NCBI GenBank assembly: GCA_035498015.1
Contig: DATKAO010000026.1
Span: 1-33,016 of the forward strand
DNA from: Myxococcota bacterium
GTDB lineage: Bacteria; Myxococcota_A; UBA9160; SZUA-336
Reading direction: 5' to 3'
DNA: 33,016 nucleotides
Position numbers and translations under genes: made by a program. Numbering within the stretch: the first letter of the stretch is position 1; every line of letters starts with the position of its first letter. The notes under the pieces were generated by a model. That model searched no databases, was not told the origin of the DNA, and saw only the letters and a list, made by a program, of their open reading frames with translations. This document shows positions 1,323-29,099 of the stretch, one piece after another.

Positions 1323-3382
1323 GCGTGCTCCTCGGCGGGCTTGGCTGCGAGCGGCAGGCGGATCAACACGCTCGTGCCCTCGCCCGGCCGCGAGCGCAGC
1401 TGGATCGTGCCGCCCTGTGCGCGGATCAGCCGCTCGCACAGCGCCAGACCCAGGCCGGTGCCCTGCTGCTTGGTCGTGTAGAAGGGGATGAAAGCGCGCT
1501 CGAGCGTGGTGTCGCTCATGCCAGGCCCGTCGTCGTCGACCTGGATCTCGACTCCGCCGTCGCCCAGCGCTCCGGGAACGCCGCGGCGCAGCGCGACGCG
1601 CACGTGTCCGCCGTCTTCGAGCGCCTCGTAGGCGTTCTGAACCACGTTCACCACCACGCGCTCGAGCTGATCGGCATCGGCGCGCAGCTCCGGGAGGCCG
1701 GGCTCGAGCTCGAGCGCGAGCTCCACGTCGCTGCGCCGCTTGGAGCGCGAGACCGCCTCGGCGCAGCTCTTCACGAACGCGGCCAGATCGCGAATCGTGG
1801 CCGTGCGCGTGGACGGCCGTGCATAGTCGAGGAATGACTCGACCACGCGGTTGAGCCGCGCGATCTCCTCGATGATCACCGCCCACAGCTCGGCCGACTT
1901 GGCGTCCGTGGGCTGCTGCAGCACGGCGACCGCGCCGCGGATCGAGGCCAGGGGGTTGCGGATCTCGTGCGCGAGCCCGGCCGCCATCTCGCCCAGTGAC
2001 ACGAAGCGGTCTCTCGCGCGCACGCGCTCGAAGGCCTTGGAGTTCTCGAGCGAGGTCGCGATCTGGTCGGCCACCAGGCGCAGCAGGCGCACCTCCTCGC
2101 TCGAGAACGACTCGCTCGAGCGCGCGTCGGCCAGCGTCCAGAAGCCCACGACCTGTGACTTGGCGCGCAGCGGCAGCACCAGCTCTGCCTCGAGGTCGCG
2201 CAGGGTCGCGCACAGCACCTCGAGCCGCGGCCGCTCGGCGGCGTTCTTGGGGTCGTCGAGCCGCCGCTCGAGCTCCTCGCGCTGCAGCACGTCGACCGCC
2301 TCGACCGTCGACACCCAGACCGGCTCGGACAAGAGACTCACTCGCGTGCGGGTCGGCAGGCCGATGCTGCCGGCGAGCTGGAAGCCGAGCGTGGCATCGT
2401 CGCGCAGGTAGATCGCCGAGGCGCGGAACAGCTCGGCCTTCTCGACCGCGGCCAGGAGCTCGGTGAGCAGCTCGTCGAGCGTGAGGATGTGCTTCAGGCG
2501 CTCGCGCAGGGGCCGCAGGCCGCGCTCGAGCGCCACCTTGCCGGCCAGGAAGCGGCGCTCCATCGCGCCCTGGATCCGGTCGCGCATGGGCGCGAAGAAC
2601 AGGAACAGCGCGAACGAGGCCACGAAGGCGTTGAACACGAACAGGTCGAGCCGCTCGCCGACCCACAGCCGGATGGCCGCGAAGAAGGCGGCGAGGCCGA
2701 CCGCCATGACGGACAGCGCCACGGTGTTCCCCACCAGCTGGCGCAGATCGGCGACACGGACCTGTGTCAGGTGCAGGTAGCCCGCGTAGAGATACAAAAG
2801 GGGAAACAGCAAGCACGCCACGCGCGGCAGCGAGAGCTGCCACAGCAGCACGTCGAGCAGGACGCCGCCGATCGCGATCGAGTGAGCCACGATCACGTAG
2901 CGCACGCGCCGCGCCTCGGGCGACGCGGCTTCGTCGGCGCGCGCGTCGTCGGTACCCGGATCACCGGACGCCGGGGCGCGGCGCCACAGCGCGAAGGTGG
3001 CGGCGGCCACGCAGCCCAGGGCGAACACGTCGGCCGCCACGTGGACGCCGCGCGGCGCGGGGTGGAGCGTGAGCAGCGCAATCCCGAGCAGGAACGGCGT
3101 GGCGGCGAACAGCGGCGCGAAGCGCGGCGCGATCGCGGGCCGGCCCACCAGCGTGGCCGCGCATGCCAGCGCGAGCGGCCCGAGCGCGATCAGCGACAGG
3201 TCGGCGAGCACGGGACCCCAGTCCTGTCCCAGCCCGCCCGCGGCGCAGCCGGTGCACCACAGGCCATAGGCCAGAGTGAGCCGCGCGAAGCGGCGCGCGG
3301 CCAGCTCGCGGCGCAGCGACAAGAACGCCACGAGCAGCACCGCGGCCGCAGCCGCGCCCATGAACGCGCTCTCTGTCTCCAT
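1319..3382 (-). CDS. Membrane sensor histidine kinase with GAF domain
   Basis: About 687 residues from ATG 3382; a GTG at 3406 in the same frame is the alternative start and neither has a clear ribosome site. The N-terminal ~270 residues hold about eight hydrophobic segments. A GAF-like sensor region follows (about 290-450), then a HisKA dimerisation helix with phospho-acceptor H472 in [10 protein letters not shown], and a HATPase domain with N box ([10 protein letters not shown]), G1 (DDGPGM) and G2 (GTGLGLAL). It should autophosphorylate and pass phosphate to D55 of the regulator encoded directly downstream, whose GTG overlaps this TGA. The multi-TM plus GAF plus HisKA plan resembles PrsK-type kinases, but no PEP-CTERM genes are seen nearby, so I give no symbol. 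It is transcribed away from coaBC across a 214-bp gap. Confidence 0.9.
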
Positions 3383-3596
3383 TGACTTCGCTCGCCTGCG
3401 GCTCACTGCGCGGGGCGGACCTGTGATCGCGCGGGCACCCTGCCCACGCTCCGCCCCTTGCGGGCCTGCGCTCAGGGCAGCCTTCGCTCGGCCACCGCAC
3501 TTACGTCTTCGGGTTTCTCGCGGGGCGCTTGACGGCCGGTTGGCGGTTTCGGGTGGCGCGGGCTACGTTCGCGAAACCAAAGAGGATTCCAGCACA
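3383..3596. other. Divergent intergenic region between sensor kinase and coaBC
   Basis: This 214-bp gap must hold promoters for both directions, but I see no convincing -35/-10 pair or -24/-12 element. It contains an imperfect inverted repeat at 3429-3449 (9-base arms, 3-base loop) that would fold best in minus-strand RNA, where its one mismatch is a G-U wobble; no T-run follows, so it does not look like a terminator. The sequence is rich in short TTCGCTCG and TGCGGCTCA words. An AGAGG at 3581-3585 serves the coaBC GTG at 3597. Confidence 0.4.
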
Positions 3597-4787
3597 GTGA
3601 GTCGGATCCTTCTCGGCGTTTCCGGAGGCATCGCCGCGTACAAGGCGTGCGAGCTGGTGCGCTCCTTCACGCAGCGCGGCCACGAGCTGCGGGTGGTCGC
3701 GACCCCGCACGCGCTCGAGTTCGTGTCGGCGCTCACGCTCCAGACTCTCTCGGGCTCGCCCGTGCGCTCCGAGTTACTGGCCGCCACCGCCGAGTCCGAG
3801 ATCTCGCACATCGAGCTCGCCGACTGGGCGCAGGTGTTCGTGGTCGCGCCCGCCACCGCCAACGTGATGGCCAAGCTCGCGCACGGCATCGCCGACGACC
3901 TGCTCACCACCGTGGCGCTGGCCTGCACGGCGCCGCTCGTGCTCGCGCCCGCGATGAACGTGAACATGTACCGGCACCCGGCCACCCAGGCGAACCTCGA
4001 CGTGCTGGCCAAGCGCGGCGTGCGCATCGTGGGGCCGGGCAAGGGTGACCTGGCCTGCGGCTGGGTGGGTGAGGGGCGGCTGATCGAGAACGACTCGATC
4101 GTGGCCGTGACCGAGGCCGCCACTGCCGAGCCCGCGCTGCGCGGCGAGGTGGTGCTGGTGAGCGCGGGCCCGACCGCCGAGCCGATCGACCCGGTGCGGG
4201 TGATCACGAACCGCTCGTCGGGCAAGATGGGCTTCGCGCTGGCCGAAGCGGCCGCGCGGCGCGGGGCAGAAGTCATCCTGGTCGCCGGTCCCGTGTCACT
4301 CGCCAGCCCGCACGGCGTGGCGCGCATCGACGTGGAGACCGCGGTCGAGATGCGCGACGCGGTGCTGGGCGCGCTCGAGCGCGCCACGATCGTGATCCTG
4401 GCGGCCGCGGTCGCCGACTACGCGCCGGCGTCGGCTGCGGACAAGAAGCTGAAGCGCGAGAAGAGCGACTCACTCTCGCTCGAGCTGGTGAAGAACCCGG
4501 ACATCCTGGCCGAGGTCGTGCGCCGGCGCGGCGCTCGCACGGTCGTGGGCTTCGCGGCCGAGACCGACCACGTGCTCGAGAACGCGCGCGGCAAGCTCGC
4601 GCGCAAGGGCTGCGACCTGATCGTGGCCAACGACGTGTCGCGCAGCGACATCGGCTTCGACGCGGACCGCAACGAAGTCGTGATTCTCGGTCCTGGCCCC
4701 GACGACCTGCGCGAGATCGCGGCGGGTCCGAAGTCGGAGATCGCGGAGCGGATCCTCGAGCGCGTGCTCGAGGTGCGCAAGAGATGA
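3597..4787 (+). CDS. coaBC: Phosphopantothenoylcysteine decarboxylase / phosphopantothenate-cysteine ligase
   Basis: A bifunctional enzyme of 396 residues for the second and third steps from pantothenate to coenzyme A. The N-terminal CoaC flavoprotein part (about 1-180) begins with GVSGGIAAYKA and has catalytic H71 in SHIEL, the PAMN motif ending at N121, and C154 in the substrate-clamp segment LACGWVGEG. The CoaB part (about 185-396) has ITNRSSGKMG, the KLKR equivalent of the KXKK motif, and the NDVS motif near the C-terminus. Start GTG 3597 gives the typical MSRILLGVSGG N-terminus and has AGAGG 11 bases upstream; longer in-frame starts would add an unconserved extension. The stop overlaps the nfeD ATG (ATGA). 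Length and motifs are complete, so it should be functional. Confidence 0.97.
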   Translation: MSRILLGVSGGIAAYKACELVRSFTQRGHELRVVATPHALEFVSALTLQTLSGSPVRSELLAATAESEISHIELADWAQVFVVAPATANVMAKLAHGIADDLLTTVALACTAPLVLAPAMNVNMYRHPATQANLDVLAKRGVRIVGPGKGDLACGWVGEGRLIENDSIVAVTEAATAEPALRGEVVLVSAGPTAEPIDPVRVITNRSSGKMGFALAEAAARRGAEVILVAGPVSLASPHGVARIDVETAVEMRDAVLGALERATIVILAAAVADYAPASAADKKLKREKSDSLSLELVKNPDILAEVVRRRGARTVVGFAAETDHVLENARGKLARKGCDLIVANDVSRSDIGFDADRNEVVILGPGPDDLREIAAGPKSEIAERILERVLEVRKR

Positions 4788-6148
4788 GGAACCCGCGCGC
4801 CGCGGCGCTCGGGCTCCTGCTCGCCGCCGCGCTGGCGGCGAGCGCGCGCGCCGAGACGGTCGCCGCCATCACGATCGACGGCGCGATCAACCCGGCGATC
4901 GCCGACTTCGTGGCGAAGTCGATCGACCGCGCCTACACCACGGGCGCCAGCGCGCTGGTGATCCAGCTCGACACGCCCGGGGGGCTGGTGGTGTCGACCA
5001 AGGACATCGTGACCGCGATCCTCAATGCCGAGCTGCCCGTGATCGTGTACGTCGCGCCGCGCGGCGCGTGGGCCGCCTCGGCGGGCACGTTCATCACGCT
5101 CTCGGGTCACGTGGCCGCGATGTCGCCGGGCTCCACGATCGGCGCCGCGCACCCGGTCTCGCTCGGCGGTGACAACCCGAGGCCCCCCGACGACGACGCC
5201 GAAGGCAAGAAGGGAAGGTCGAAACACTCGGACTACATGGCCGAGAAGCTCGAGAACTTCACCACCGCGTTCATCGAGGCGATCGCGCAGGAGCGCAAGC
5301 GCAACGTCGAGTGGGCCGCGCAGGCGGTGCGGAACTCGGTGGCGATCGGCGCGCCCGAAGCGCTGAAGCGCAACGTGATCGACTTGATCGCCGAGGACAT
5401 GGACGACCTCTTGGCGAAGAGCGACGGGCGCAAAGTCACCGTGGGCAAGCGCACGGTCACCCTGCACACCAAGGGCGCAGCGGTCGTGCAGCTGCCGATG
5501 GACCTCATGACTCGCGTGTTCGCGGTGATCGCCGACCCGCAGATCGTCGGCCTGTTGTTCCTGATCGGGCTCCTGGGCATCTGGATCGAGTTCCAGAACC
5601 CGGGGCTGATGGCGCCCGGCGCGGTCGGTGCGGTGGCCCTGGTGCTCGCGGCCACCGCGCTGCAGATCATCCCGTTCAACTGGGTCGGACTGCTGCTCGT
5701 GGCCGGCGGGATCGCGCTGATCGTGGCCGAGGTACACCTGTCGAGCTACGGGCTGCTGTTCGCGCTGGGGCTGGCCGCGCTGTGCTGGGGCGCCTGGCTC
5801 ACGTTCCGCGTGCCGGAGCTCTCGGACCTGTCGCTGCCGTTCTGGGGCGCGGTGTTTCCCGCGGCACTGTCACTCGCGCTGCTTCTCAGCGCGGTGGCCT
5901 GGGCCGTGTCGCGCGCGCAGGCGCGGCCGCAGTATTCCGGCGCGGAGGCCCTGCTCGCCGAGCTGGGCGTGGCCGACAGCGACCTCGAGCCCGAGGGGCG
6001 CGTGCTGGTGCGGGGCGAGCTGTGGCGGGCGGTCGCGGACGAGCCCGTGCGCCGCGGCGACAAAGTCGAGATACTGGCCGTGAACGATCTGGTGCTGCGC
6101 GTGCGGGCGCGGCCGGGGCCGCGGGACGGCCAGGCGCGGAACAGCTAG
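4784..6148 (+). CDS. NfeD-family membrane-bound serine protease (ClpP-like, long form)
   Basis: 454 residues. A signal peptide (about 1-23, ending ARA) precedes a periplasmic ClpP/SppA-like protease domain. By comparison with archaeal 1510-N proteases, Ser99 in WAASAGT is the likely nucleophile and Lys155 in MAEKLEN the likely general base of a Ser-Lys dyad. About four to five membrane helices follow from residue 240 to 380, then a C-terminal OB-fold (NfeDC) at about 385-450. Long-form NfeD proteins are typically encoded beside a stomatin/slipin and cleave it near its hydrophobic C-terminal end; the next gene here is exactly such a slipin, 10 bp away. ATG 4784 overlaps the coaBC stop by 4 bp. 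Confidence 0.93.
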
Positions 6149-6158
6149 GGGGAGAGGC

Positions 6159-6920
6159 ATGGTCTATCCGATCGCGATCGCCGCCTTCATCGGCGTGCTG
6201 TTCCTGATGTCCGCGGTGCGCGTGCTCCAGGAGTACGAGCGCGGCGTGCTGTTCCGGCTCGGCCGCTTCAGCAGCGTGAAGGGCGCCGGCCTGCGCGTGG
6301 TGATCCCCGGCGTCGACCGGCTGGTGCGCGTGTCACTGCGCGAGGTGGTCATGGACGTGCCGCCGCAGGACGTGATCACCAAGGACAACGTGTCGGTGAA
6401 GGTCAATGCGGTGCTCTACTTCCGGGTGGTCCACCCGCAGGACGCGATCATCAAGGTCGAGAACTTCCTGTACGGCACCTCGCAGCTGGCGCAGACCACG
6501 CTGCGCAGCGTGTGCGGCCAGGCGGAGCTCGACCACCTGCTGGCCGACCGCGAGCGCATCAACCGCCAGCTGCAGTCGGAGCTCGACCACGGCACCGACC
6601 CCTGGGGCGTGAAGGTGCGCGCGGTCGAGATCAAACACATCGACCTGCCCGAAGACATGCGCCGCGCCATGGCCAAGCAGGCCGAGGCCGAGCGCGAGCG
6701 GCGCGCCAAGGTGATTCACGCGCAAGGTGAGTTCGAGGCCTCGCAGCGGCTGAAGGAAGCCTCCGACGTGATGACCCAGTCGCCCTACACGCTCCAGCTG
6801 CGCTACCTGCAGACACTCTCCGAGATCGCGGTCGAGCACAACTCGACCATCTTGTTCCCCATGCCGATCGATCTGCTCTCCCCGTTCCTCGACTCGCTCC
6901 ATGCGCGGCGGAACGCGTAG
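6159..6920 (+). CDS. Slipin (stomatin-like SPFH-domain protein)
   Basis: 253 residues. One N-terminal membrane helix (about 3-22) leads into an SPFH/Band 7 domain with the family-typical opening [16 protein letters not shown], then [16 protein letters not shown] and the helical region [17 protein letters not shown]. Such proteins assemble into large membrane rings or microdomains. The neighbouring NfeD is the usual partner and protease. The ATG at 6159 follows GGGGGAGAGG, a good ribosome site. This is a short bacterial slipin of normal length; the two following genes encode two further SPFH proteins, so three paralogous Band 7 proteins stand in tandem. Confidence 0.94.
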
Positions 6921-6926
6921 GTCGGT

Positions 6927-7859
6927 ATGCGGGGGGTGTTTCTCGCGGTCCTTCTGGTTCTCGCAGTCGCGGGGGCCTTGTGGGTGTGGCGCGGCTTCTA
7001 CGACGTGGCGCCCGACGAGCAGGCGATCGTGCTGCGGCTCGGACGCTACGACCGCACGGTCGACCCAGGCAGCTTCCACTGGCACGCGCCCGGGCTGGAG
7101 CAGGTGCTCAAGCAGCGAGTCACCACGACGCTGCGCGAGGAGTTCGGCTACCGCACCACGAACGCCGCGACGGGCACGGTCGAGGAGCACCCCGAGGAGA
7201 AGAGCATGCTGACGTCGGACGAGAACCTGGTCGACGTCGACTTCGTGGTGCAGTACCGGATCGGCGACGTGCGCGACTACCTGCTCAACTTCCAGCCCGA
7301 GCAGCGCGAGGCCGTGCTGCGCGACGCCGCGCGCGCGGCCGTGCGCACGGTCGTGGCGCAGAACCCGATCGACCAGGTGCTGACTGCGCGCGGCCTGATC
7401 CACGACGCGGCGCGCGAGGAGCTGCAGGCCACGCTCGACGCCTATCGCGCCGGGGTGCGCGTCGAGAACATCCAGCTGCAGGACGTGGCCGCGCCCGAGC
7501 CCGTGCGCGAGGCCTTCGCCGACGTGACCAGCGCTCAGCAGGACCGCGAGCGCGCGGTGCTCGAAGCGCAGGGCTACGCGGACAAGGTGGTGCCCGAGGC
7601 GCGCGGCAGGTCGGAAGAGGCGGTCAACCTGGCGCATGCCTACCACGAGCGGCGCATCCTCGAGGCCCAGGGCCAGGTCGCGGGCTTCAAGGCGGTGCTC
7701 GACCAGTACAAGAAAGCGCCCGACGTGACTCGCCAGCGGCTCTATCTCGAGACGCTCGAGACGATCCTGCCGAAGATGGACAAGGTGATCCTGGAGCGTG
7801 GCTCGAGCGACCAGCTCCTGCCGTATCTGCCGCTGCCGCGGCGCGAGGGCCCGAAATGA
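6927..7859 (+). CDS. hflK: HflK-like SPFH protein, FtsH protease modulator
   Basis: 310 residues. An N-terminal membrane helix (about 3-21) is followed by a Band 7 domain with the HflK-type signature LTSDENLVDVDFVVQYRI and a long helical, charged tail region. HflK and HflC form a cage around FtsH hexamers in the inner membrane and limit access of membrane substrates. Compared with the E. coli protein (just over 400 residues) this one lacks the long glycine/proline-rich N-terminal cytoplasmic segment and is shorter at the C-terminus, as in many delta-proteobacterial homologues. It starts 6 bp after the slipin stop, and its own stop overlaps the hflC ATG. Confidence 0.88.
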   Translation: MRGVFLAVLLVLAVAGALWVWRGFYDVAPDEQAIVLRLGRYDRTVDPGSFHWHAPGLEQVLKQRVTTTLREEFGYRTTNAATGTVEEHPEEKSMLTSDENLVDVDFVVQYRIGDVRDYLLNFQPEQREAVLRDAARAAVRTVVAQNPIDQVLTARGLIHDAAREELQATLDAYRAGVRVENIQLQDVAAPEPVREAFADVTSAQQDRERAVLEAQGYADKVVPEARGRSEEAVNLAHAYHERRILEAQGQVAGFKAVLDQYKKAPDVTRQRLYLETLETILPKMDKVILERGSSDQLLPYLPLPRREGPK

Positions 7860-8773
7860 ACCGCTGGATCGCAGCACTCCTCCTGGTGGCGGGGCTCGGC
7901 GCCTTCGCGTTCTTCTGTGTCACGATCATCGACGAGCGCGAGCAGGCCTTCCGCACGCTGCTCAACCAGGCCGAGCCCAAGGTCCTGGGCGTGTCTCTGA
8001 ACCAGCCGAACTTGACCGAGCCCGGCTGGTACGTGGTGATTCCCGGCCTGCACGAGCTCACGCGTTACGACCGGCGCAACATCCACTTCCATTCGGCCAA
8101 GCGCTCGCTCAACACCGTGGAGCGGACGCTGGTCGACGTGGACTACTACATCGTGTGGCGCATCGTCGACCCGCGCGCGTTCTACGAGTCCTACCGGCGC
8201 GAAGACGCCGCCGTGCAGCGCATCGACGAGGTGACTTACAGCGAGGTGCGCGAGACCGTGAACAAGCACAGCCTCGCCGACCTGCTCTCGCCCACGCGCG
8301 GCGCGGTGCAGCAGGAGATCACCGCCTCGGCCGACGGCAAGCTGCGCGAGCGGGGCGTGCGGATCGTCGACGTGCGGCTGGGCGCCACGCTCTACCCCGA
8401 GGAGAACCTGGCGCGCGTGTACGACCGCATGCGCACCGAGCGCGCGCGCTTCGCGCTGAAGTTCCGGGCCGAAGGCGAGCAGCAGGCGCGAGCGCTGCGC
8501 TCGAAGGCCGACGGGGAGAGCCAGGTGATCCTGGCCACGGCCGAGCGCGAGTCGCTCGAGCTGCGCGGCACCGGCGATGCCGAGGCGGCGCGCATCTACT
8601 CCGAGGCCTACTCGGGCGATCCCGAGTTCTACGCCTTCTTCCGCAGCCTCGAGGCCTACCGCAAGTCACTCGACGCGCAGACCACGGTCGTGATGTCGCC
8701 GCGCTCGGGCTTTCTCAAGTACCTGTTCGACATGAACGGCACGCCGCCGGTCTCGGCGCGGCCGGAGCGCTAG
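7856..8773 (+). CDS. hflC: HflC-like SPFH protein, FtsH protease modulator
   Basis: 305 residues from ATG 7856, which overlaps the hflK TGA (ATGA). An N-terminal membrane helix (about 4-22) runs into the SPFH domain; HflC-typical segments include TIIDEREQAFRTL, LVDVDYYIVWRI and the region RARFALKFRAEGEQQA, then AAR-rich helices ending in FLKYLFDMNG. It should pair with HflK to control FtsH. The TAG stop (8771-8773) abuts the TGA of the convergent lpt-type gene on the other strand with no base between, so no classic terminator fits between them. Confidence 0.9.
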   Translation: MNRWIAALLLVAGLGAFAFFCVTIIDEREQAFRTLLNQAEPKVLGVSLNQPNLTEPGWYVVIPGLHELTRYDRRNIHFHSAKRSLNTVERTLVDVDYYIVWRIVDPRAFYESYRREDAAVQRIDEVTYSEVRETVNKHSLADLLSPTRGAVQQEITASADGKLRERGVRIVDVRLGATLYPEENLARVYDRMRTERARFALKFRAEGEQQARALRSKADGESQVILATAERESLELRGTGDAEAARIYSEAYSGDPEFYAFFRSLEAYRKSLDAQTTVVMSPRSGFLKYLFDMNGTPPVSARPER

Positions 8774-9847
8774 TCACTCGGGGATCAGCCGGTAGCGCCA
8801 GAAGCCCAGCGCGAGCGCGCCCAGCGTGACGCCCCAGACCGGCAGCGGGGCGGGCACCTGGCCGCCGCGCGCGGCCAGCAAGGCCACCGTCCAGCACAGC
8901 CAGAACACCGCCGCGGCGCCGAGCGAGCGCAGCAGCGCCCGCGGGAGTGAGTCGGCCTTGCCCGAATCGCCGGTCGCGAACGGGATCGCCAGCAGCACCA
9001 CGATCAGCACCGCGAACGGCTGCGCCAGGCGGCTGTGGAACGCCAGCTCGAGCTTGGCCTTCTCGGCCGCGTCGTGTCCGCTCTTGCGGATCAGCCGCGC
9101 GAGCTGGTGCAGCGAGGCCGTGGCCGCGGGATCGGTCGCGCGGCTCATCTCGGTGCCGGTGATGCCCAGGTTCAGCCGCAGCGACGGCGCCTCGTGTCTG
9201 GCGATGCCCTCGTCGGAGGAGAAATCGAGCACGTGCGCGTCGCGGATCTCCCAGGTGTCTCCGTCGACGCTCGTCGCGGTCTTGGCGTCGATGCGCTGCC
9301 GGATCTCGCGCTTCTCGTCGAACAGGAACACGGTCACGTCGTGCAGCGCGTGTGTCTCGAGATCGTACGAGGCCGCCGAGAAGATCGAGGCGCCCGAGGC
9401 GAACCACCAGCGCTTGAGCAGGCGCTCCGGCGCGCGGGTGCCCTCGTCGTCGGCCGCGCGCCCGGCCTCGAGGCGCTCGCGCAGCGGCAGCAGCACGCGG
9501 TCCTCGAGCACGCCCAGCCCGCCCGCCACCAGCGCGCACAGGATCAGGAGCGGCGCCAGCGCCGCCTGCAGGCGGATCCCGCCCGTGCGGATGGCCGTGA
9601 GCTCGCGGTTGCGCACCGCGCGCGAGAGACACAGCACGGCGCCGGTCAGGCCCGACAAGGGCAACACGATCGGCAGCACGGGCAGGGCGCGCAGCGCGAC
9701 CTCGCGCAGGCCCGCGAGCACGTGACCCGCCAGGTCGTCGATGTGCAGCAGGATGTCCGCGGCGAACCACATGGCCGCAATGCCGAGAAACACCCCGGTG
9801 GTGGCCACGATGAACTCGACCAGGAGATGGCGCGCGATCGTCCGCAC
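8774..9847 (-). CDS. LptF/LptG-family permease (YjgP/YjgQ)
   Basis: 357 residues. Two N-terminal membrane helices and a connecting segment (IVLPLSGLTGAVLCLSRAVRN, followed by ELTAIRTGGI) match the LptF/LptG permease family, a periplasmic beta-jellyroll region spans about 130-260, and three more helices lie at about 270-350. In the Lpt machine LptF and LptG with LptB2 extract lipopolysaccharide from the inner membrane. Only one permease is present here and the partner must lie elsewhere; I cannot decide between F and G. GTG 9847 gives the typical start of the family just before the first helix; no clear Shine-Dalgarno sequence precedes it. Confidence 0.87.
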   Translation of the reverse strand: MRTIARHLLVEFIVATTGVFLGIAAMWFAADILLHIDDLAGHVLAGLREVALRALPVLPIVLPLSGLTGAVLCLSRAVRNRELTAIRTGGIRLQAALAPLLILCALVAGGLGVLEDRVLLPLRERLEAGRAADDEGTRAPERLLKRWWFASGASIFSAASYDLETHALHDVTVFLFDEKREIRQRIDAKTATSVDGDTWEIRDAHVLDFSSDEGIARHEAPSLRLNLGITGTEMSRATDPAATASLHQLARLIRKSGHDAAEKAKLELAFHSRLAQPFAVLIVVLLAIPFATGDSGKADSLPRALLRSLGAAAVFWLCWTVALLAARGGQVPAPLPVWGVTLGALALGFWRYRLIPE

Positions 9848-9904
9848 GGCGGCAGGATAGGACAGGGGGCGGAGGCGCGCGCGGTGAGGCTAAGATGCCG
9901 GGGG

Positions 9905-10864
9905 ATGCAAGTCATCGAGGGGAGCGATCAGCCGCCCGAGGGGGCTCGCGGGTGCGTGCTGACGGTCGGGAACTTCGACGGCCTGCACCTGGGCCACCGC
10001 GCGCTGATCGCGCGGGTGATCGAGCGCGGCCGCCAGCTCGGCCGGCGCACCGTGCTGTACACCTTCGACCCGCACCCGCGGCGCGTCCTGTTCCCCGACA
10101 CACCGCAGCAGCTGCTCATGACCTGGGACCAGCTCGCGGCGGCGCTCGAGGCCGAAGGCATCGACTATCTCGTGCGCGAGCGCTTCACCTCGGCCTTCGC
10201 GGCGCTCTCGCCCGAGGAGTTCCTGCGCGACGTGATCGCCGAGCGGCTCGGGCCGCGCGAGGTGTTCGTGGGCCGTGACTTCCACTTCGGCAAGGGCCGC
10301 GCCGGCTCGGGCGAGATGCTGGTGGCGCGCGGCCCGGCGCTGGGGATCCGGGTCGAGTTGCTGCCGCAGGTGCGCGCCGGCGGCGCCGACGTGTCGAGCA
10401 CGCGCATCCGCGAGGCGCTGGCGCGCGGCGACGTGGCCGAAGCGCGGGTGTGTCTCGGTCGGCCCTACACGGTGTGGGGTCGCGTCGTCGAAGGCGACCG
10501 GCGCGGGCGCACGCTCGGCTTCCCGACCGCGAACCTCGCGCCCGAGAACGAGATCGTGCCCGCGAATGGCGTGTACGCCACGCGCGTGCGGCTGTTCGAT
10601 CCGGCGCTGCCGTCGCGGCCCTCGGCTGACTCGCTGCCGGCAGTGACCAACGTGGGCACGCGGCCCACCTTCGCGCCGGGCCGCGTGCTGGTCGAGACAC
10701 ACCTGTTCGACTTCCAGGGCGACCTGTACGGACGGCGCCTGGAGCTCGCCTTCCACGCGCGCATCCGCGAGGAGCGCCGCTTCTCGGGTCCGCAGGAGCT
10801 CGCGCGCCAGATCGGCGCCGACGCCGAACAGGCGCGGCACACCCTGCGCGCGGAGCCCGAGTGA
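9905..10864 (+). CDS. ribF: Bifunctional riboflavin kinase / FAD synthetase
   Basis: 319 residues. The N-terminal FAD synthetase (nucleotidyltransferase) domain has TVGNFDGLHLGH, GRDFHFGKGRAG and SSTRIREAL. The C-terminal flavokinase domain has the GRTLGFPTANL phosphate/flavin loop, TNVGTRPTF, and the ETHLFDF segment carrying the catalytic glutamate. It converts riboflavin to FMN and FMN to FAD. ATG 9905 is preceded by a G-run, and an in-frame upstream extension lacks family similarity. The TGA overlaps the next gene's GTG by 4 bp. Length is as expected for the bacterial enzyme. CoaC at 3597 is itself an FMN enzyme, but the two genes are in separate operons. Confidence 0.96.
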   Translation: MQVIEGSDQPPEGARGCVLTVGNFDGLHLGHRALIARVIERGRQLGRRTVLYTFDPHPRRVLFPDTPQQLLMTWDQLAAALEAEGIDYLVRERFTSAFAALSPEEFLRDVIAERLGPREVFVGRDFHFGKGRAGSGEMLVARGPALGIRVELLPQVRAGGADVSSTRIREALARGDVAEARVCLGRPYTVWGRVVEGDRRGRTLGFPTANLAPENEIVPANGVYATRVRLFDPALPSRPSADSLPAVTNVGTRPTFAPGRVLVETHLFDFQGDLYGRRLELAFHARIREERRFSGPQELARQIGADAEQARHTLRAEPE

Positions 10865-10867
10865 CTC
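10859..10867. repeat. Exact copy of the iterated word GAGTSACTC
   Basis: GAGTGACTC spans the ribF stop codon and the start of the next gene, flanked by C and G so that the symmetric core is 11 bases. It is one of six exact copies in the window (others at 22769, 23538, 23605, 26140 and 27469). Confidence 0.6.
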
Positions 10868-11910
10868 GCTGGCTGCGCATCGCGCTCGACTGGCGCATCT
10901 GGCTCGGGGTCGCGCTGCCGGTCGCGGCCATCGCCTACACCGTGCACGACGTCGACCTGCGCGAGGTCGCGGCGCACATCGGCGATGCCAACCCCTGGCT
11001 GGTGCTGGCCATGGTGCCGATGCACGTGGCCGCGCTCTGGCTGCGCGCGCTGCGCTGGCGCTGGCTGGCGCGCTCGCTGTCGCGCGATCCGCTGCCGCTC
11101 GGCCCGCTGTTCCGCGCCACGGCGCTCGGCTTCATGGCGATCAACGTGCTGCCGTTCCGGCTGGGTGAGCTCGCGCGCCCGTGGCTGCTGGGGCGCGAGA
11201 CCGAGGTGCGCGGCTCGGCGGCGCTGGGCACGCTCGTGCTCGAGCGCGCCATCGATTTCACGGCGGTGTCGGTGCTGGGCGGGATCCTGTTGTTCCTGCA
11301 CACCAAGGCCATGCCGTCCTGGGTGCGCTCGGGCGCCGCCATCTTCGCGGTGTTCACCGCCGTGCCCGTGGTGGCCATCGCGGCGCTGCGCTTCGACGAG
11401 GCCGGCTCGCTGTCGCTCCTGTCGCGGCTCATCCGGCCCTTCCCCGAGGGCGTGCGGCACCGGGTGATGGACCTCGTCACCGAAGTGTGTCGCGGTCTCG
11501 CGGGGCTGCGCGGCGTCCACGCCACCGCACAGGTCTTGCTGCAGACCGTGATCCTGTGGGTCGTGGTGCTGCCCGCGCCGTTCCTGCTCGGGCTGTACGC
11601 GTTCGGCATCGAGTACCCGCCGCGCCAGCAGCTGCTCGCGACCTTCACGACCAACATCTTCGTGGCGCTCGCGGTGGCGGCGCCGTCGGCGCCGGGCTTC
11701 TTCGGCGTGTTCCACTTCGCCTGCCGTGAGGCGCTGCACCTGTTCGGCGTGTCGCGTGCCGTGGCGGTGGCCTACGGCACGCTGGTGCACATCACTTACT
11801 GGCTGCCGGTGACTCTGATCGGCTCGGTCGTGGCTGCGCAGACGGGCGCGCGTCTGGCCGAGATCGTGGCGCCCGGACTGGGTAAAGCTCCCTCCGGCGA
11901 CCACCGATAA
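10861..11910 (+). CDS. Flippase-like integral membrane protein (LPTM/UPF0104 family)
   Basis: 349 residues with about eight membrane helices and the family pattern LRALRWRWLARSL early and GLRGVHATAQVLLQTVILW in the middle, then APSAPGFFGVFHFACREAL near the C-terminus. This matches the lysylphosphatidylglycerol synthase transmembrane (LPTM, formerly UPF0104, AglD-like) family. Members are thought to move lipids or polyprenyl-linked sugars across the membrane. The aminoacyl-transfer domain of MprF is absent, so lysinylation of lipid is not expected. GTG 10861 overlaps the ribF stop by 4 bp. Substrate unknown. Confidence 0.85.
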   Translation: MTRWLRIALDWRIWLGVALPVAAIAYTVHDVDLREVAAHIGDANPWLVLAMVPMHVAALWLRALRWRWLARSLSRDPLPLGPLFRATALGFMAINVLPFRLGELARPWLLGRETEVRGSAALGTLVLERAIDFTAVSVLGGILLFLHTKAMPSWVRSGAAIFAVFTAVPVVAIAALRFDEAGSLSLLSRLIRPFPEGVRHRVMDLVTEVCRGLAGLRGVHATAQVLLQTVILWVVVLPAPFLLGLYAFGIEYPPRQQLLATFTTNIFVALAVAAPSAPGFFGVFHFACREALHLFGVSRAVAVAYGTLVHITYWLPVTLIGSVVAAQTGARLAEIVAPGLGKAPSGDHR

Positions 11911-22660: not shown

Positions 22661-23449
22661 ATGGGGGAGCCCGCGATCTCGATGCCCGTGCTGGGCGCGT
22701 TCGCGTTCGTGCTGGGCGCCTGCATCGGCAGCTTCCTGAACGTCGTGGTGTGGCGCCTGCCGCGCGGCGAGTCACTCGTGCGTCCGGGCTCGCACTGTCC
22801 CGCCTGCGACGCGGCCATTCCCGCCTGGGCGAACGTGCCGCTCCTGTCCTACGCGCTGTTGCGCGGGCGCTGCAAAGCCTGCGGCGCGCACATCTCGGCG
22901 CGCTACCCGCTGGTCGAGGCGCTGACGGGCGCGGTGTTCGCGGCGCTGATGCTGGTGCAGGGCCCCACGGCGCGGCTTTTGGTCGACTGGGCGCTCGCGG
23001 CCGCGCTGATCGCGGTGACCTTCATCGACGTCGACCACCACATCATCCCGAACTCGATCACCATCCCGGGCCTGGCGATCGGCCTGTTCCTGTCGCTCGT
23101 GGCGCCGCAGCTGGCGGTCGACTGGCGCGACGCGCTGCTGGGCGTGGTGCTGATCGGCGGCGGCATGTGGGCGATCTCGGCCGGCTACGAGCGCTTCTCG
23201 GGCAAGATCGGGCTGGGCATGGGTGACGTGAAGCTGGTGGCCATGCTCGCGAGCTTCCTCGGGCTCGAGGGGGCGCTGGGCGTGCTGATCGTCGGGTGTC
23301 TCGTGGGGATCGCGTACGGCGTGCTCATGCTGGCTTGGGTGAAGGGCGGGCGGGACACGCGCATTCCGTTCGGGCCGGCGCTGGCTGCGGCCGGGCTGGT
23401 GTTCCTGTTCCAGCCCAACTTCCTCGACCACTTCCTGGTCCGGCCGTGA
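22661..23449 (+). CDS. pilD: Prepilin leader peptidase / N-methyltransferase
   Basis: 262 residues, about seven to eight membrane helices. The cytoplasmic loop carries the two CxxC pairs of the methyltransferase-type form (C46/C49 and C71/C74). Aspartyl protease residues are D123 or D125 in FIDVDHHIIPNS and D189 in the GMGDVKL (GxGD) motif. It cuts the leader of PilA at G10/F11 and methylates the new N-terminal Phe. All expected catalytic residues are present. Its TGA overlaps the GTG of the following kinase gene. Confidence 0.96.
   Translation: MGEPAISMPVLGAFAFVLGACIGSFLNVVVWRLPRGESLVRPGSHCPACDAAIPAWANVPLLSYALLRGRCKACGAHISARYPLVEALTGAVFAALMLVQGPTARLLVDWALAAALIAVTFIDVDHHIIPNSITIPGLAIGLFLSLVAPQLAVDWRDALLGVVLIGGGMWAISAGYERFSGKIGLGMGDVKLVAMLASFLGLEGALGVLIVGCLVGIAYGVLMLAWVKGGRDTRIPFGPALAAAGLVFLFQPNFLDHFLVRP
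22769..22777. repeat. Exact copy of GAGTSACTC inside pilD
   Basis: GAGTCACTC flanked by C and G. It encodes Glu-Ser-Leu-Val with the rare-in-context codon TCA. It is one of six exact copies. Confidence 0.6.
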
Positions 23450-23537
23450 CCCGGCGCGTCGGCGTCCAGCTCGAGATCGTCGCGAACCTGTTCGTGATGA
23501 TGTTCGCGGGCGTGGCGCTGGTGGGCGTGGTGCTGCT

Positions 23538-23546
23538 GAGTCACTC
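23538..23546. repeat. Exact copy of GAGTSACTC
   Basis: GAGTCACTC inside the second kinase gene, 67 bp from the next exact copy at 23605. Confidence 0.6.
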
Positions 23547-23604
23547 GGCGGTCACCGTGCGAGACGAGGCGGTCGAGCGCCTGCGCATGGGCTCGCGCCA
23601 TCTC

Positions 23605-23613
23605 GAGTCACTC
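23605..23613. repeat. Exact copy of GAGTSACTC
   Basis: GAGTCACTC inside the second kinase gene; encodes Glu-Ser-Leu across three codons. Confidence 0.6.
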
Positions 23614-24946
23614 CTGGAGCGCGGCGTGAACGACCTGGCCGACCTGGCCGCGGTCGCACACACCTCCACTCCGCGGCTGGCCGGCGGCGAGTTCGCCGTG
23701 CTCGACGCGTCGGGCCGCCAGGTGCTGGGCCCGCCGTTCGACGCCGCCGGGCGCCAGCAGATCGCGGAGCTGGTGGAGCTGGCGCGCGCGCGCGGCGAGG
23801 TGCTCGAGCTGGGGAGTCTGTGGCGCGGCGAGCTGGCGCTCGTGACTCCGGTCCGCACGCACTCGGGCCAGGAGGGCTTCCTCGTGGGCCGCAGCCGCGG
23901 CGAAGAGTACCGCGCGCGGCTCGCGCCGCTGGTGGCGTCGGGCGTCGGCCTCCTGGTCATCGCCACGTCGGTGTTCGCGGGCTTCGGCGCCTGGCTGCTG
24001 CGGCGGCGGGTCGTCTCGCCCCTGGCCGAGCTCGCGCGCGGCACGCGGCGCGTGGCGGCGGGCGACCTGGCGGCGCGCATCGCCACGCAGGGGCCCGCCG
24101 AGCTCGAAGACCTGGCCGCGTCGTTCAACCGCATGGCCGAAGCGCTCGAAGCCGACCGCGCCGCGCTCGAGCGCGCCCAGGACGCGCTGGCGCGCGGCCG
24201 GCGCCTGGCGAGCGTGGGCCAGCTCGCGGCGGGGGTCGCGCACGAGGTCGGCAACCCGGTGGCGGCGATCCTGGGCTACGCCGAAATGTGTCAGCGGGAA
24301 CGCGGCGCGAGCGCGCGCTCGCGCGAGCTGGCGGAGCACATCGCGGACGAGGCGATGCGCATCCGCACGCTCGTGCGCGAGATGCTCGACCTGTCCCGCC
24401 CCGATGCGCTCTCGGTCGAGCGCGTGCCCGCGGCCGAGCTCTTGGAGCGCGTGGCGGAGCGCATGCGCCCGCAGCCGCTGTTGGCGGGCATCGAGCTCGC
24501 GTCGTCGCTCGCGCCGGAGCTGCCCCTTGTCGACGTGGACCGGCGCCGGATCGAGCAGATCTTCGTGAACCTGGTCGAGAACGCGGCGCACGCCCTGCGC
24601 GGGGTGACCGGCCCGAGGATCGAGCTCGCCGCCGAGCGCGCGCGTGATCCCGCGCGGCCCGCGCGCCGGGCATCGGATCGCACGGACGAAAGTCACGCGG
24701 CCGAGCGCGCGCCGGACTCCGTCGCCTTCACGGTCACCGACAACGGCCCGGGCATCGACCCCGAACACCTGCCGTACGTGTTCGACCCGTTCTTCACCAC
24801 CAAGGAGCCCGGCGAGGGCTCGGGCCTGGGCCTGTGGAACGCACACCGGCTGGCCGAGCTCCTGGGCGGAAGACTCGAAGTCGCGAGTCAGTCCGGCCGG
24901 ACTTGCTTCAGATTGGTGTTGCCGGCGGCCGATACGAACGCCGGCC

Positions 24947-26383
<1,437 letters not shown>

Positions 26384-26422
26384 GGCACCTCGCAGCGTTC
26401 TTGCTGCCGGGTGGAGGTCGCC

Positions 26423-27592
26423 ATGTCGAAGCGAGTCATCGCAATCGCGATCGCACTGGCGTGCGCGGCGTGCGGCGGCTCGGACCCGACGCCGCCCGCG
26501 TCGAGCGCACAGCCGGCGGCGTCTGCCAAGCCCGCGGGAAACTCCGAGCCGGAGATCGTGAGCGCCACGCTCTCACCGGAGCCGGCCGGCGCCGGTGACT
26601 CGGTGTCGATCGACGTGAACGCGCGCGACATCGACCGCGATCGCCTGCAGACCACGATCGAGTGGTACCGCAACGGCGAGCTCGACGCCTCGCTGCAGGG
26701 CGTGTCGATTCCGGGAAACACCTTCAACCGCGGCGACCGCGTGTACGCCGTGGCGCACGTCTCCGACGGCCTGCACGAGGTGAGCAAGGCGACCAATCCG
26801 CTCACGATCGGCAACGCCGTGCCCAAGGTGCGCGGGGTCTCGATCGGCCCGTCGAGCGCGACCGCCTCAGACGTGCTCGAGGCCCAGGCCACGGCGCAGG
26901 ACGCGGACGGTGACTCGATCGAGCTCTCGTACCGCTGGTTCAAGAACGGCCAGCCGCTCGAGGGCGCGACCGACGCGCGCCTCCCGGCCGGCCGCGTGCG
27001 CCGCGGCGACAAGCTCGCGGTCGAGGTCTCCGCCAGCGACGGCACGGACCAGAGCGAGTGGGTGCGCTCGCAGGACTTCGTGATCGCGAACGCCCAGCCC
27101 GTGATCACCTCGCAGCCGGGCTACGAGATGGGCCCGACCGGCGTGTACAGCTACGAGATCTCGGCCAAGGACGCCGACGGCGACACACCGCTGCGCTACG
27201 AGCTGGTGAGCGGGCCGACCGGCATGGCGATCGACGACGCCACGGGCGCGGTCACCTGGACCGTCCCGCAGGACGCGAAGGCCAGCAACCCGATCGAGGT
27301 CGCCGTGACCGACGGCTTCGGCGGCCGCGCGACCCAGCGCTGGGTGCTCTCGGTCGACTGGAACCAGGCGCCAGCGGCGCCGGCTGGCGAGAACGGCGAG
27401 GACAAGGCGCCGGCGAACGCCAAGCGCGCCGCCGCGAACGGCGAGAAGCCCGCCGCCGCCGCCAAGTCGAGTGACTCGAAGAAACCGCAGGCCGCCAAGC
27501 CGCAGCGCGCGCAGCCGCAGCGCGGCGACGGCGACGACCTCGATCGTGATCAGGGGGAGGAGTACCGGCAGGAGAAGGAAGAGGAGTTCTAG
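26423..27592 (+). CDS. Putative lipoprotein with three Ig/cadherin-like repeats
   Basis: 389 residues from ATG 26423 (GGAGG at 26413-26417). An N-terminal signal segment (MSKRVIAIAIALACAAC) offers C14 as a lipidation site, a loose lipobox match. Three repeats of about 90 residues follow (about 42-132, 133-224, 225-312), each with an acidic loop of DxDxD form at D69-D73, D160-D164 and D250-D254. The first two also share W-Y/F-R/K-NG, R-G-D-K/R and a SDG near the end; the third reads like a cadherin/He_PIG-type fold. The tail (about 315-389) is Ala/Lys/Pro/Gln-rich and ends strongly acidic. I do not recognise a named family. Being between the second regulator and the pilM operon, it may be a calcium-dependent cell-surface or periplasmic partner of the pilus; that is inference. 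Confidence 0.75.
   Translation: MSKRVIAIAIALACAACGGSDPTPPASSAQPAASAKPAGNSEPEIVSATLSPEPAGAGDSVSIDVNARDIDRDRLQTTIEWYRNGELDASLQGVSIPGNTFNRGDRVYAVAHVSDGLHEVSKATNPLTIGNAVPKVRGVSIGPSSATASDVLEAQATAQDADGDSIELSYRWFKNGQPLEGATDARLPAGRVRRGDKLAVEVSASDGTDQSEWVRSQDFVIANAQPVITSQPGYEMGPTGVYSYEISAKDADGDTPLRYELVSGPTGMAIDDATGAVTWTVPQDAKASNPIEVAVTDGFGGRATQRWVLSVDWNQAPAAPAGENGEDKAPANAKRAAANGEKPAAAAKSSDSKKPQAAKPQRAQPQRGDGDDLDRDQGEEYRQEKEEEF
27469..27477. repeat. Exact copy of GAGTSACTC in an extended palindrome
   Basis: GAGTGACTC extends symmetrically to 13 bases (27467-27479, TCGAGTGACTCGA), the longest symmetric copy in the window. It lies in the low-complexity tail of the lipoprotein gene. Confidence 0.6.
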
Positions 27593-27769: not shown

Positions 27770-28024
27770 GTGGCCAGTAACAACGTTCGGCGGATACGCG
27801 AGGCGCTCATGATGAGCAAGGCCGAGCTCGCGCGTAAGGCCGGCCTCTCGACCCTCACGATCGACCGCGTCGAGGCCGGCAAGACCTGCCGCCTCGACAC
27901 CAAGCGCAAGATCCTGCATGCGCTCGGCCTGCGTGTCTCCGACAAGGACTCTGTCTTCGGCGATCGCCCCGTCGATCACCTGCTCGCCACTCACAGCGCG
28001 GACGCGCTGTCGGACGGGAACTGA
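27770..28024 (+). CDS. Small XRE/Cro-type helix-turn-helix protein
   Basis: 84 residues from GTG 27770, with GGAGGGG at 27759-27765; the upstream in-frame extension of 16 residues lacks a ribosome site. Residues 5-55 form a compact HTH_3 domain: NVRRIREALMMSKAELARKA, recognition helix LSTLTIDRVEAG, then KRKILHALGL. It ends with a 30-residue unstructured tail. The stop is 7 bp before pilM, so it is almost certainly co-transcribed with pilM-N-O-P-Q. Possible roles are autoregulation of this operon or linking DNA-bound control to pilus assembly; the sequence does not decide. Confidence 0.85.
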   Translation: MASNNVRRIREALMMSKAELARKAGLSTLTIDRVEAGKTCRLDTKRKILHALGLRVSDKDSVFGDRPVDHLLATHSADALSDGN

Positions 28025-28031
28025 GGCACGC

Positions 28032-29099
28032 ATGGCACTGTTCGGAAACAAGACGGTCATCGGACTCGACATCGGCTCTTCGACGGTGAAGGCGGTCGAG
28101 CTGGAGCCGCACGGCGGCAGCTACCGCCTGCGCGGGTTCGGCTTCGCGTCGCTCCCGCCCGAGGCGATCGTGCAGGGCTCGTTCATGAACGCGCCCGCGA
28201 TCTCGGCCGCAATCTCCGAGGCCTGCTCGATGGGCAGCTTCAAGTCGAAGGAAGTGGTGACCTCGATCTCGGGTCACTCGGTGATCGTCAAGCGCATCTC
28301 GCTCCCCGCGCAGAGCAAGGAGGAGCTGGAAGAGACGATCCGCTGGGAGGCCGAGCAGTACATCCCGTTCGACATCAACGAAGTCAACATCGATCACCAG
28401 ATCCTGCGCGAGACCGGCATCGACGGCCAGATGGACGTGCTCCTGGTCGCCGCCAAGAAGGACCTGATCGACGACTACCAGAGCGTGATCACCGAGGCGG
28501 GTCTCTCGCTCGTGGTGATGGACGTCGACGCCTTCGCGGTCGGCAACATGTACCAGCACAACTACGAGCCGGCCGACGACACCACCGTGGCGCTGCTCGA
28601 CCTGGGCGCCTCGGTCATCAACATGAACGTGATGAGCGGCTCCGTGCCGGTCTTCACGCGCGACATCACCTCGGGCGGCAATCAGTACACCGAGGAGATC
28701 CAGAAGACGCTGGGCATCACCTTCGAAGAGGCGGAGCGCATCAAGATCGGCGGCCGGCCGGGTGAGACGTCGAAGGACGTCGTGCCGCAGGAGGTCGAGG
28801 AGGCCATGCGCGAGGTCTCCGAGACCATGCTCGGGGAGATCCAGCGCTCACTCGACTTCTACCGCGCGACCGCCTCCAGCTCGCGCATCGAGCGCGTGCT
28901 CCTGTGCGGCGGCGCCGCGCGCGTGCCCGGCCTCGACCGGATCTTCCACGACAAGCTCGAGATCGCCGTCGACATCGCGGACCCGTTCCAGCGCGTCGAG
29001 ATCGGCTCCTCGGCGGGCGACGAAGACCGACTCCGCGAGCTGGGTCCGGCTCTGTGCACCGCGATCGGACTCGCCATGCGGCAGGGGGACGACAAGTGA
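28032..29099 (+). CDS. pilM: Type IV pilus assembly ATPase-fold protein
   Basis: 355 residues, an FtsA/actin-like protein that lies on the cytoplasmic face. The phosphate-1 loop is IGLDIGSSTVKAVEL near the N-terminus, phosphate-2 is VALLDLGASVINMNV, and the adenosine-binding segment is RVLLCGGAARVPGLDRIF. It binds the short cytoplasmic N-terminus of PilN, whose INLLP motif is encoded immediately after. ATG 28032 has GAGG upstream. The TGA overlaps the pilN GTG by 4 bp. Confidence 0.96.
   Translation: MALFGNKTVIGLDIGSSTVKAVELEPHGGSYRLRGFGFASLPPEAIVQGSFMNAPAISAAISEACSMGSFKSKEVVTSISGHSVIVKRISLPAQSKEELEETIRWEAEQYIPFDINEVNIDHQILRETGIDGQMDVLLVAAKKDLIDDYQSVITEAGLSLVVMDVDAFAVGNMYQHNYEPADDTTVALLDLGASVINMNVMSGSVPVFTRDITSGGNQYTEEIQKTLGITFEEAERIKIGGRPGETSKDVVPQEVEEAMREVSETMLGEIQRSLDFYRATASSSRIERVLLCGGAARVPGLDRIFHDKLEIAVDIADPFQRVEIGSSAGDEDRLRELGPALCTAIGLAMRQGDDK

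What the first reader, a model, noticed from the sequence alone, without database searches (positions are those of the whole stretch)
26423..27592. Uncharacterised Ig/cadherin-repeat lipoprotein embedded in the pil locus
Three ~90-residue repeats carry evenly spaced DxDxD loops (D69, D160, D250), suggesting calcium-binding beta-sandwich domains, with an acidic C-terminal tail and a lipoprotein-like N-terminus. It stands between the second kinase/regulator pair and pilM-Q. It could be a periplasmic scaffold for the pilus machine, a surface adhesin, or the ligand sensed by the periplasmic domain of the second kinase. It is the best candidate for an undescribed accessory component here.
Basis: partly seen in the sequence, partly recalled or inferred. 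Interest (0 to 1): 0.5.

Follow-up and report, generated by a model that had tools for sequence, protein, structure and literature searches.

The report
Pilus-tip operon Ig-like lipoprotein
A three-domain, cadherin-like lipoprotein, for which no description was found, is encoded with the pilus-tip genes across a little-studied branch of myxobacteria, so it is probably an extra part that helps build, hold or calcium-tune the tip of their type IV pili.

Summary
Bases 26423-27592 encode a 389-residue lipoprotein (likely lipid Cys17). AlphaFold gives three confident beta-sandwich domains of cadherin/Ig/FN3 type, and all three DxDxD loops are conserved. One slip: an 84-residue helix-turn-helix gene lies between it and pilM.

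The main result comes from relatives in the window's class of Myxococcota (probably GTDB UBA9160; label recalled). 43 of 49 sampled genomes with PilY1 have the protein; 1 of 10 without PilY1 does. Outside the window's own family, 54 of 60 places fetched have a same-strand minor-pilin or pilY1 gene within 1.5 kb; 28 of 60 have any pilR2, HTH or pilM hit in the stretch. In the window's family the PilY1 genes lie on other contigs and this gene stands behind pilR2. So it belongs to the PilY1 tip/priming module more than to the PilM-Q machine or the kinase.

Best reading: an outer-membrane-anchored, probably calcium-stiffened accessory factor of the PilY1/minor-pilin complex, analogous to but not related to M. 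xanthus TfcP, encoded just upstream of pilY1.1. The module placement is well supported; the molecular step and calcium binding are inferred. No description turned up in the literature listings I saw.

The parts
26423..27592 (+). Ig/cadherin-like lipoprotein gene (389 aa)
   Evidence: ORF with GGAGG at 26413-26417; match in 44 of 59 genomes, own included
26423..26473 (+). Signal peptide and probable lipid-attachment Cys (residues 1-17)
   Evidence: lipobox-like start in 45 of 51 homologous frames; A1 and A4, whose starts were mostly picked by the lipobox
26549..26806 (+). Beta-sandwich domain 1 (about residues 43-128), DxDxD at 26627-26641
   Evidence: AlphaFold2 strands 44-123; Asp counts
26807..27094 (+). 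Beta-sandwich domain 2 (about residues 129-224), DxDxD at 26900-26914
   Evidence: AlphaFold2 strands; Asp counts
27095..27358 (+). Beta-sandwich domain 3 (about residues 225-312), Big_9/He_PIG type, DxDxD at 27170-27184
   Evidence: Pfam; AlphaFold2; Asp counts
27359..27589 (+). Disordered Ala/Pro then acidic tail (residues 313-389)
   Evidence: low pLDDT; tails compared
24944..26383 (+). PilR2-like NtrC-family response regulator, directly upstream (39-base gap)
   Evidence: Pfam Response_reg, Sigma54_activat, HTH_8
23446..24978 (+). PilS2-like histidine kinase
   Evidence: HAMP, HisKA, HATPase_c
27770..28024 (+).
   Evidence: Pfam HTH_3; conserved upstream of pilM
28032..29099 (+). pilM, first of pilM-N-O-P-Q (28032 to the window end)
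   Evidence: PilM_2; PilO, PilP, AMIN/STN

Best explanation
The protein is an accessory lipoprotein of the type IVa pilus tip/priming module. SHOWN: the gene and a lipobox-like start; three confidently predicted beta-sandwich domains with conserved Asp loops; linkage, same strand, to the minor-pilin/PilY1 genes in most of the class places fetched outside the window's family; absence from 9 of 10 sampled genomes without PilY1; a separate position behind pilR2 in the window's family. INFERRED: the lipid anchors it to the outer membrane (Gly at +2, by the E. coli Lol rule, recalled); the three domains form a rod whose Asp loops bind calcium; the rod contacts PilY1 or the minor pilins as they gather below or in the PilQ pore, helping PilY1 to fold, bind calcium or stay docked before extension. 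This would be the job TfcP does for PilY1.1 in M. xanthus, done by an unrelated protein.
For: Linkage: of 60 class places fetched outside the window's family, 54 have a same-strand FimT, PilW, PilX or PilY1 gene within 1.5 kb; nearest marker PilY1 26, PilX 25, FimT 3; PilY1 itself within 1.5 kb in 39 (layouts). Where PilX and PilY1 are both on the same strand as the gene (36 loci), the order is PilX-PilY1-gene in 19, PilX-gene-PilY1 in 14, other in 3: the gene moves inside the cluster but stays in it. The 6 misses: L041, L068 and L078 are cut within 300 bases on one side; L047 (4.3 and 2.5 kb of flank) and L057 (0.7 and 2.8 kb) show none; L061 is a second copy beside PilR2. A second view, anchored on the HTH gene upstream of pilM in named assemblies (many are the same genomes): of 80 loci 22 show the lipoprotein and 20 show PilY1, 15 both. 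In the 5 with PilY1 only, PilY1 starts within about 0.1 kb of the locus edge, and for one of them (L179) the same contig holds the lipoprotein just outside (L139). Of 17 loci that run from PilB or PilC to PilM without PilY1, 1 shows it (L170, second-copy type). Profile in the 59 genomes, own included: both 43, neither 9, PilY1 only 6, lipoprotein only 1; Fisher p = 3.6e-6. Of the 6, G041 carries it at a contig end and G052 is cut at PilY1, G002 and G005 are 58% and 75% complete. Identity of the cluster: PilY1 passes Pfam's cut-off; in the window's own genome the PilX-like gene passes PilX_N (26.0 against 25.5) and the first pilin GspH; PilW passes in L038; the PilV-like gene only N_methyl (NCBIfam PilV below cut-off). 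All 53 long PilY1 frames scanned (some genomes twice) match a loose EF-hand-like pattern. Precedent: TfcP lies immediately upstream of pilY1.1 and stimulates its calcium binding (PMC13190605 section 2.3; PMC8833165 passages).
Against: In the window's own family the gene is not in the PilY1 cluster: none of 10 PilY1 loci fetched from that family shows it (L126-L135, two of them cut at PilY1). G036 and G044 have the cluster without it, even at a permissive threshold. No contact with PilY1 or a minor pilin could be modelled. A distance-matrix comparison had 7 loci only (partial r 0.50 with PilY1, 0.47 with PilX) and is inconclusive. Calcium binding is untested, and TfcP itself did not detectably bind calcium (PMC8833165 passage). 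Several minor-pilin labels rest on sub-cut-off matches and gene order (PilW 22.8 against 26, PilX_N 18.5 against 25.5 in L044). The 60 places leave out matches inside large frames and some weaker second matches. The profile test ignores shared ancestry and incomplete assemblies.
Confidence: 0.6

Rival explanations
1. Calcium-dependent surface adhesin displayed on the cell body, co-expressed with pili so that retraction brings the cell to a surface to which the lipoprotein then sticks.
For: Many of the best structural matches are adhesion proteins: cadherins, and the bacterial cadherin-like domains of SraP (4m00_A Z 9.6, rmsd 4.9 over 168; 4m03 Z 9.7, rmsd 4.1 over 152). Divergent sequence (26-46% identity to the window) would fit surface exposure.
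Against: Position inside the PilX/PilY1 cluster and the compact size suggest a fixed role with the tip complex; no expansion of repeats was seen among the frames (259-425 aa), and three copies are shorter.
Confidence: 0.17
2. Periplasmic scaffold of the core machine: binds PilP/PilQ/TsaP rather than PilY1, as its place next to pilM-Q in the window suggests.
For: Just upstream of the HTH gene in 6 of 6 fetched members of the window's family besides the window; pilM follows in the 5 whose contig goes on.
Against: Outside that family 28 of 60 places have any PilR2, HTH or PilM hit in the stretch (PilM in 22) against 54 of 60 near minor pilins/PilY1; 16 of 17 PilB/C-to-PilM loci lacking PilY1 lack it too.
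Confidence: 0.12
3. Ligand or co-receptor of the second histidine kinase (PilS2), reporting pilus state to PilR2.
For: In the window's family it follows pilR2 on the same strand with a short gap and so is probably co-transcribed with it.
Against: G007 of the same family shows no PilS2 between PilD and PilR2 but keeps the lipoprotein; outside the family it is often in another transcription unit or with no kinase or regulator in the stretch held. No sigma-54 site stands out upstream.
Confidence: 0.06
4. Ordinary envelope lipoprotein with Ig domains that merely hitchhikes in the operon.
For: Such domains are common: many larger proteins of the phylum match them.
Against: Linkage is kept in eight families of the class (f2-f7, f9, f11) although the gene's place inside the cluster changes, and the gene is absent from 9 of 10 sampled genomes without PilY1.
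Confidence: 0.05

Closest known systems
TfcP of Myxococcus xanthus (PMC8833165, passages seen; PMC13190605 section 2.3 read)
   Same: Extra gene in a minor-pilin/pilY1 cluster, immediately upstream of pilY1; accessory to PilY1; linked to calcium. TfcP has a charged C-terminal extension, as has the window's protein.
   Different: TfcP is a cytochrome c without a conserved calcium motif, found with the pilY1.1 type cluster only. No sequence relation is claimed.
He_PIG / Big_9 (bacterial Ig, cadherin-like) domain proteins
   Same: Domain 3 passes Pfam's gathering score for both.
   Different: The matches outside the class that I saw are mostly in long multi-domain frames; this is a compact lipoprotein tied to pilus genes.
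Cadherin EC domains and SraP cadherin-like domains (PDB 2a4e, 4m00 and others)
   Same: Fold, with tied matches also to Ig and FN3 proteins such as PECAM-1 and PTPRD. That cadherin Asp loops bind calcium is recalled.
   Different: Low identity (7-20%), different anchoring and context.
PilY1/minor-pilin priming complex of M. xanthus (PMC7541494, passages seen)
   Same: The kind of cluster in which most homologues sit: FimU/FimT, PilV, PilW, PilX, PilY1.
   Different: [quoted passage not shown] 'lipoprotein' occurs 0 times in the held main text.

Membership tests
He_PIG / Big_9 bacterial Ig domain (Pfam PF05345, PF17963) | Score over the curated cut-off | tested here: met
   Domain 3: Big_9 31.8 bits (cut-off 23.6), He_PIG 30.2 (24)
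He_PIG / Big_9 bacterial Ig domain (Pfam PF05345, PF17963) | Domains 1 and 2 also match a curated model over its cut-off | tested here: not met
   Only Ig_3, 18.8 bits below its cut-off of 30, touches domain 1; no row for domain 2
Cadherin-like calcium-binding repeat | Beta-sandwich fold in tandem | tested here: met
   AlphaFold2; Foldseek and VIA matches to cadherins, tied with Ig and FN3 proteins
Cadherin-like calcium-binding repeat | Calcium ions actually bound between or within repeats | not testable with these tools
   no model coordinates at hand; only Asp conservation shown
Bacterial lipoprotein | Signal peptide with lipid-attachment Cys | tested here: met
   lipobox-like start in 45 of 51 homologous frames and in the window; by my own pattern, no trained predictor was at hand
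Minor-pilin/PilY1 tip-complex module | Encoded in the FimT-PilV-PilW-PilX-PilY1 cluster | tested here: inconclusive
   54 of 60 places outside the family; not so in the window's own family
Minor-pilin/PilY1 tip-complex module | Physical presence in the priming complex or pilus tip | not testable with these tools
   needs pull-down or proteomics
TfcP | Cytochrome c with haem-binding CxxCH | tested here: not met
   Cys14 and Cys17 are the only Cys, in the signal peptide, read CAACG; no cytochrome match

The most novel reading that the evidence does not exclude
A class-wide, outer-membrane lipoprotein with three calcium-stiffened cadherin-like domains holds or loads the PilY1/minor-pilin complex below the secretin, so that calcium gates assembly of the pilus tip: a second, independent solution to the problem that TfcP solves in M. 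xanthus, and a regular component of the pilus machine in this class.
Probability: 0.25. Interest if true: 0.7.

Novelty: new variant of a known kind. Interest (0 to 1): 0.5.

Why it matters
How the PilY1/minor-pilin complex is built, kept stable and docked before a pilus extends is still open, and most models come from Pseudomonas, Neisseria and Myxococcus (from general knowledge). A conserved extra lipoprotein in that cluster, in a branch of Myxococcota that the 2026 survey of 67 genomes does not name in the sections I read, is a concrete new candidate for an outer-membrane partner of the tip complex and a testable link between calcium and pilus assembly.

Tried and rejected
Kinase-ligand reading: weakened by G007 and by class-wide synteny. 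Sigma-54 control of the gene: 6 loose matches in the window against 10.4 expected, and no site of the pattern used within 150 bases upstream in 7 of 7 family members. No sigma-70-like promoter or terminator hit between 26300 and 28100. Co-evolution by distance matrices: only 7 loci had all genes; too few. Tree: the window's family is one clade (support 0.995) but deeper branches are weak, so I cannot say whether the tip cluster left the lipoprotein behind or the lipoprotein moved; second copies beside PilR2 (L044, L049, L061) did not group firmly with the window's family. Outside the class: the 9 loci fetched around same-phylum matches (L090, L096-L103; some on short contigs) show no minor-pilin, PilY1 or PilM hit; in L087, L092 and L094, three other-family loci where both genes were called, no gene was called between pilX and pilY1. 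By sequence the best PDB match is E 0.018 to an engineered repeat protein, taken as chance. Literature: listings (15 of 75 papers shown; 1 paper each; none) gave no such lipoprotein; one search lists 7 papers with UBA9160 and Myxococcota, seen as a listing only.

Dropped or not taken: I left out L080, L084, L085 (overlaps or no copy), L086-L103 (outside the class) and L095; two tandem copies in L041 count as one place. Class matches inside large frames and some weaker second matches (for example G025:C151, G033:C103) were not fetched; one search did not list all its matches. Six of 51 frames without a lipobox were not in the first alignment. The first tree held rows in the wrong frame and was replaced; alignment A3 held one wrong-frame row (L162) and was replaced by A4.

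Full report
WHAT IS THERE. The ORF 26423-27592 is a real gene: ATG with a GGAGG just upstream, 389 codons, third-position GC 0.94 as in its neighbours. The genome is a 4.5-Mb, 257-contig assembly and gave one match. The window holds a type IVa pilus locus: PilB, PilT, PilC, a kinase/regulator pair, a pilin, a weakly TPR-like protein (below Pfam's cut-offs), an ABC transporter pair, PilD, a second kinase/regulator pair, this gene, a small HTH gene, then PilM-N-O-P-Q (PilT, PilN and the first kinase were not scanned with Pfam and are named from sequence and place). The order resembles the myxobacterial pilQPONMRSDIHGARSCTB cluster of PMC13190605 (section 2.3 read).

ANATOMY. Signal peptide with Cys17 at a lipobox-like site; a linker; three beta-sandwich domains (about 43-128, 129-224, 225-312), with mean pLDDT 88-98 in 26 of 27 ten-residue blocks; a disordered tail. 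Foldseek gives 213 PDB matches at E 0.001 or better, led by cadherins. VIA-align gives cadherins at Z about 10 over the three domains with large rmsd, tied with Ig and FN3 proteins; shorter alignments are tighter, such as cadherin-11 (2.6 over 91) and the staphylococcal SraP cadherin-like pair (4.1 over 152). So the fold class is firm and the choice of cadherin over Ig or FN3 is not. Domain 3 is a Big_9/He_PIG domain. The DxDxD loops and a second Asp in each domain (D115, D206, D297) are kept in 43 to 53 of 54 homologues, except D71 (41) and D73 (35) in the first loop. Calcium binding is plausible, not shown. The acidic tail belongs to 6 of 7 members of the window's family. Three relatives of about 260 aa appear to lack domain 1.

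WHERE RELATIVES ARE. 44 of the 59 genomes sampled, own included, have a match; of those at least 90% complete and at most 5% contaminated, 32 of 37. I fetched surroundings and scanned them with profiles of the window's pil proteins and of the minor-pilin/PilY1 genes. The labels of the latter rest on Pfam: PilY1 over its cut-off; in L044 the minor pilins mostly under theirs; in the window's own genome GspH and PilX_N over theirs, in L038 PilW over its own, the PilV-like gene only by the methylation motif, closest to NCBIfam PilV below cut-off. Besides the window I examined 66 places in the class. The 6 of the window's family all lie between PilR2 and the HTH gene. Of the other 60, 54 have a same-strand minor-pilin or PilY1 gene within 1.5 kb; 28 have any PilR2, HTH or PilM hit in the stretch. 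A second view, centred on the HTH gene in named assemblies, is not an independent set of genomes, since many contigs are the same, but was not chosen by the lipoprotein: 22 of 80 loci show it. Of these, 15 have PilY1 in the stretch, 4 are the window's family (L141, L147, L157, L186), 1 is a second copy (L170) and 2 lie at a contig edge (L169, L185). 5 loci show PilY1 but not the lipoprotein, all with PilY1 at the locus edge. Of 17 loci running from PilB/PilC to PilM without PilY1, 16 lack it. None of the 10 loci titled Nannocystis, Enhygromyxa or Paraliomyxa shows it in the stretch held.

THE WINDOW'S FAMILY. In the window's genome FimT-PilV-PilW-PilX-PilY1 are on another contig (contig 112: L126), with pilX followed directly by pilY1 and no lipoprotein; none of ten PilY1 loci fetched from this family shows it, though L134 and L135 are cut at PilY1. 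So the window shows the gene in its unusual place. The window's context alone would have suggested the core machine or the kinase; the class-wide context points to the tip module. Whether the tip genes left or the lipoprotein moved is not settled.

NAMES. The HTH scan also hit an assembly named UBA9160 (L182). I infer GTDB class UBA9160; the class label is recalled, not tested.

HOW IT PROBABLY WORKS. PilY1 and minor pilins form the complex that primes the pilus and is present in it (PMC7541494, passages). PilY1 depends on calcium, and in M. xanthus TfcP, encoded immediately upstream of pilY1.1, stimulates calcium binding by PilY1.1 at low calcium and so stabilises it (PMC8833165 passages; PMC13190605 section 2.3). 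In this class a lipid-anchored, Asp-rich, rod-like protein is encoded in the same cluster: between PilX and PilY1 in 14 of 36 loci, after PilY1 in 19. The PilY1 proteins here match an EF-hand-like pattern (53 of 53 long frames have at least one match to a loose pattern, some genomes counted twice). I think the lipoprotein supports PilY1 or the assembled tip complex at the outer membrane. I hold the module assignment at about 0.6 and the tethering or calcium-loading step at about 0.25. An independent adhesin is the main rival.

NOVELTY. In the PilY1 survey of 67 Myxococcota genomes, 'lipoprotein', 'Ig-like' and 'UBA9160' do not occur in the held main text. Its sections 2.3 and 2.4 name the orders Myxococcales, Polyangiales, Nannocystales and Haliangiales, and section 4.4 says that species were chosen to cover all described families. 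The listings of five literature searches (15 of 75 papers seen) gave no such protein. Supplements were not read. Domains and cluster are known kinds; the combination appears undescribed.

Noticed in passing
window 27770-28024: An 84-aa Xre-type HTH gene is strongly conserved (71-86% identity to the window's in 13 class members) and sits just before pilM, also in the 10 loci titled Nannocystis, Enhygromyxa or Paraliomyxa. PilM is actin-like, and RodZ's HTH binds the actin-like MreB (recalled), so it might bind PilM rather than DNA; one narrow literature search gave no paper.
   Followed up: partly
L044:6339-6914, L049:11151-11774, L061:6447-7067: A second, shorter copy of the lipoprotein stands beside the PilR2-like regulator in some genomes, much like the window's copy; two of the three show no clear lipobox.
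   Followed up: partly
L136, L138 (G036, G044): One genus (g31) has the minor-pilin/PilY1 cluster but no detectable lipoprotein near it or in the genome: a natural loss that could be compared.
   Followed up: partly
C-termini of homologues outside the window's family: 29 of 37 carry Pro-Ala in the last 8 residues although the proteins are only about 30% identical; possibly a binding or processing signal, not tested against chance.
   Followed up: no
L062, L070, L072: Copies of about 260 aa that appear to lack domain 1, with no change in their place beside PilX or PilY1.
   Followed up: no
L133 (G010) 158-11073: In one member of the family a PilY1 gene and the FimT-PilX genes lie on opposite strands, separated by genes that look like groES and groEL by eye.
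   Followed up: no
window 4784-8770: An NfeD-type protein followed by three Band_7/SPFH proteins in a row.
   Followed up: no
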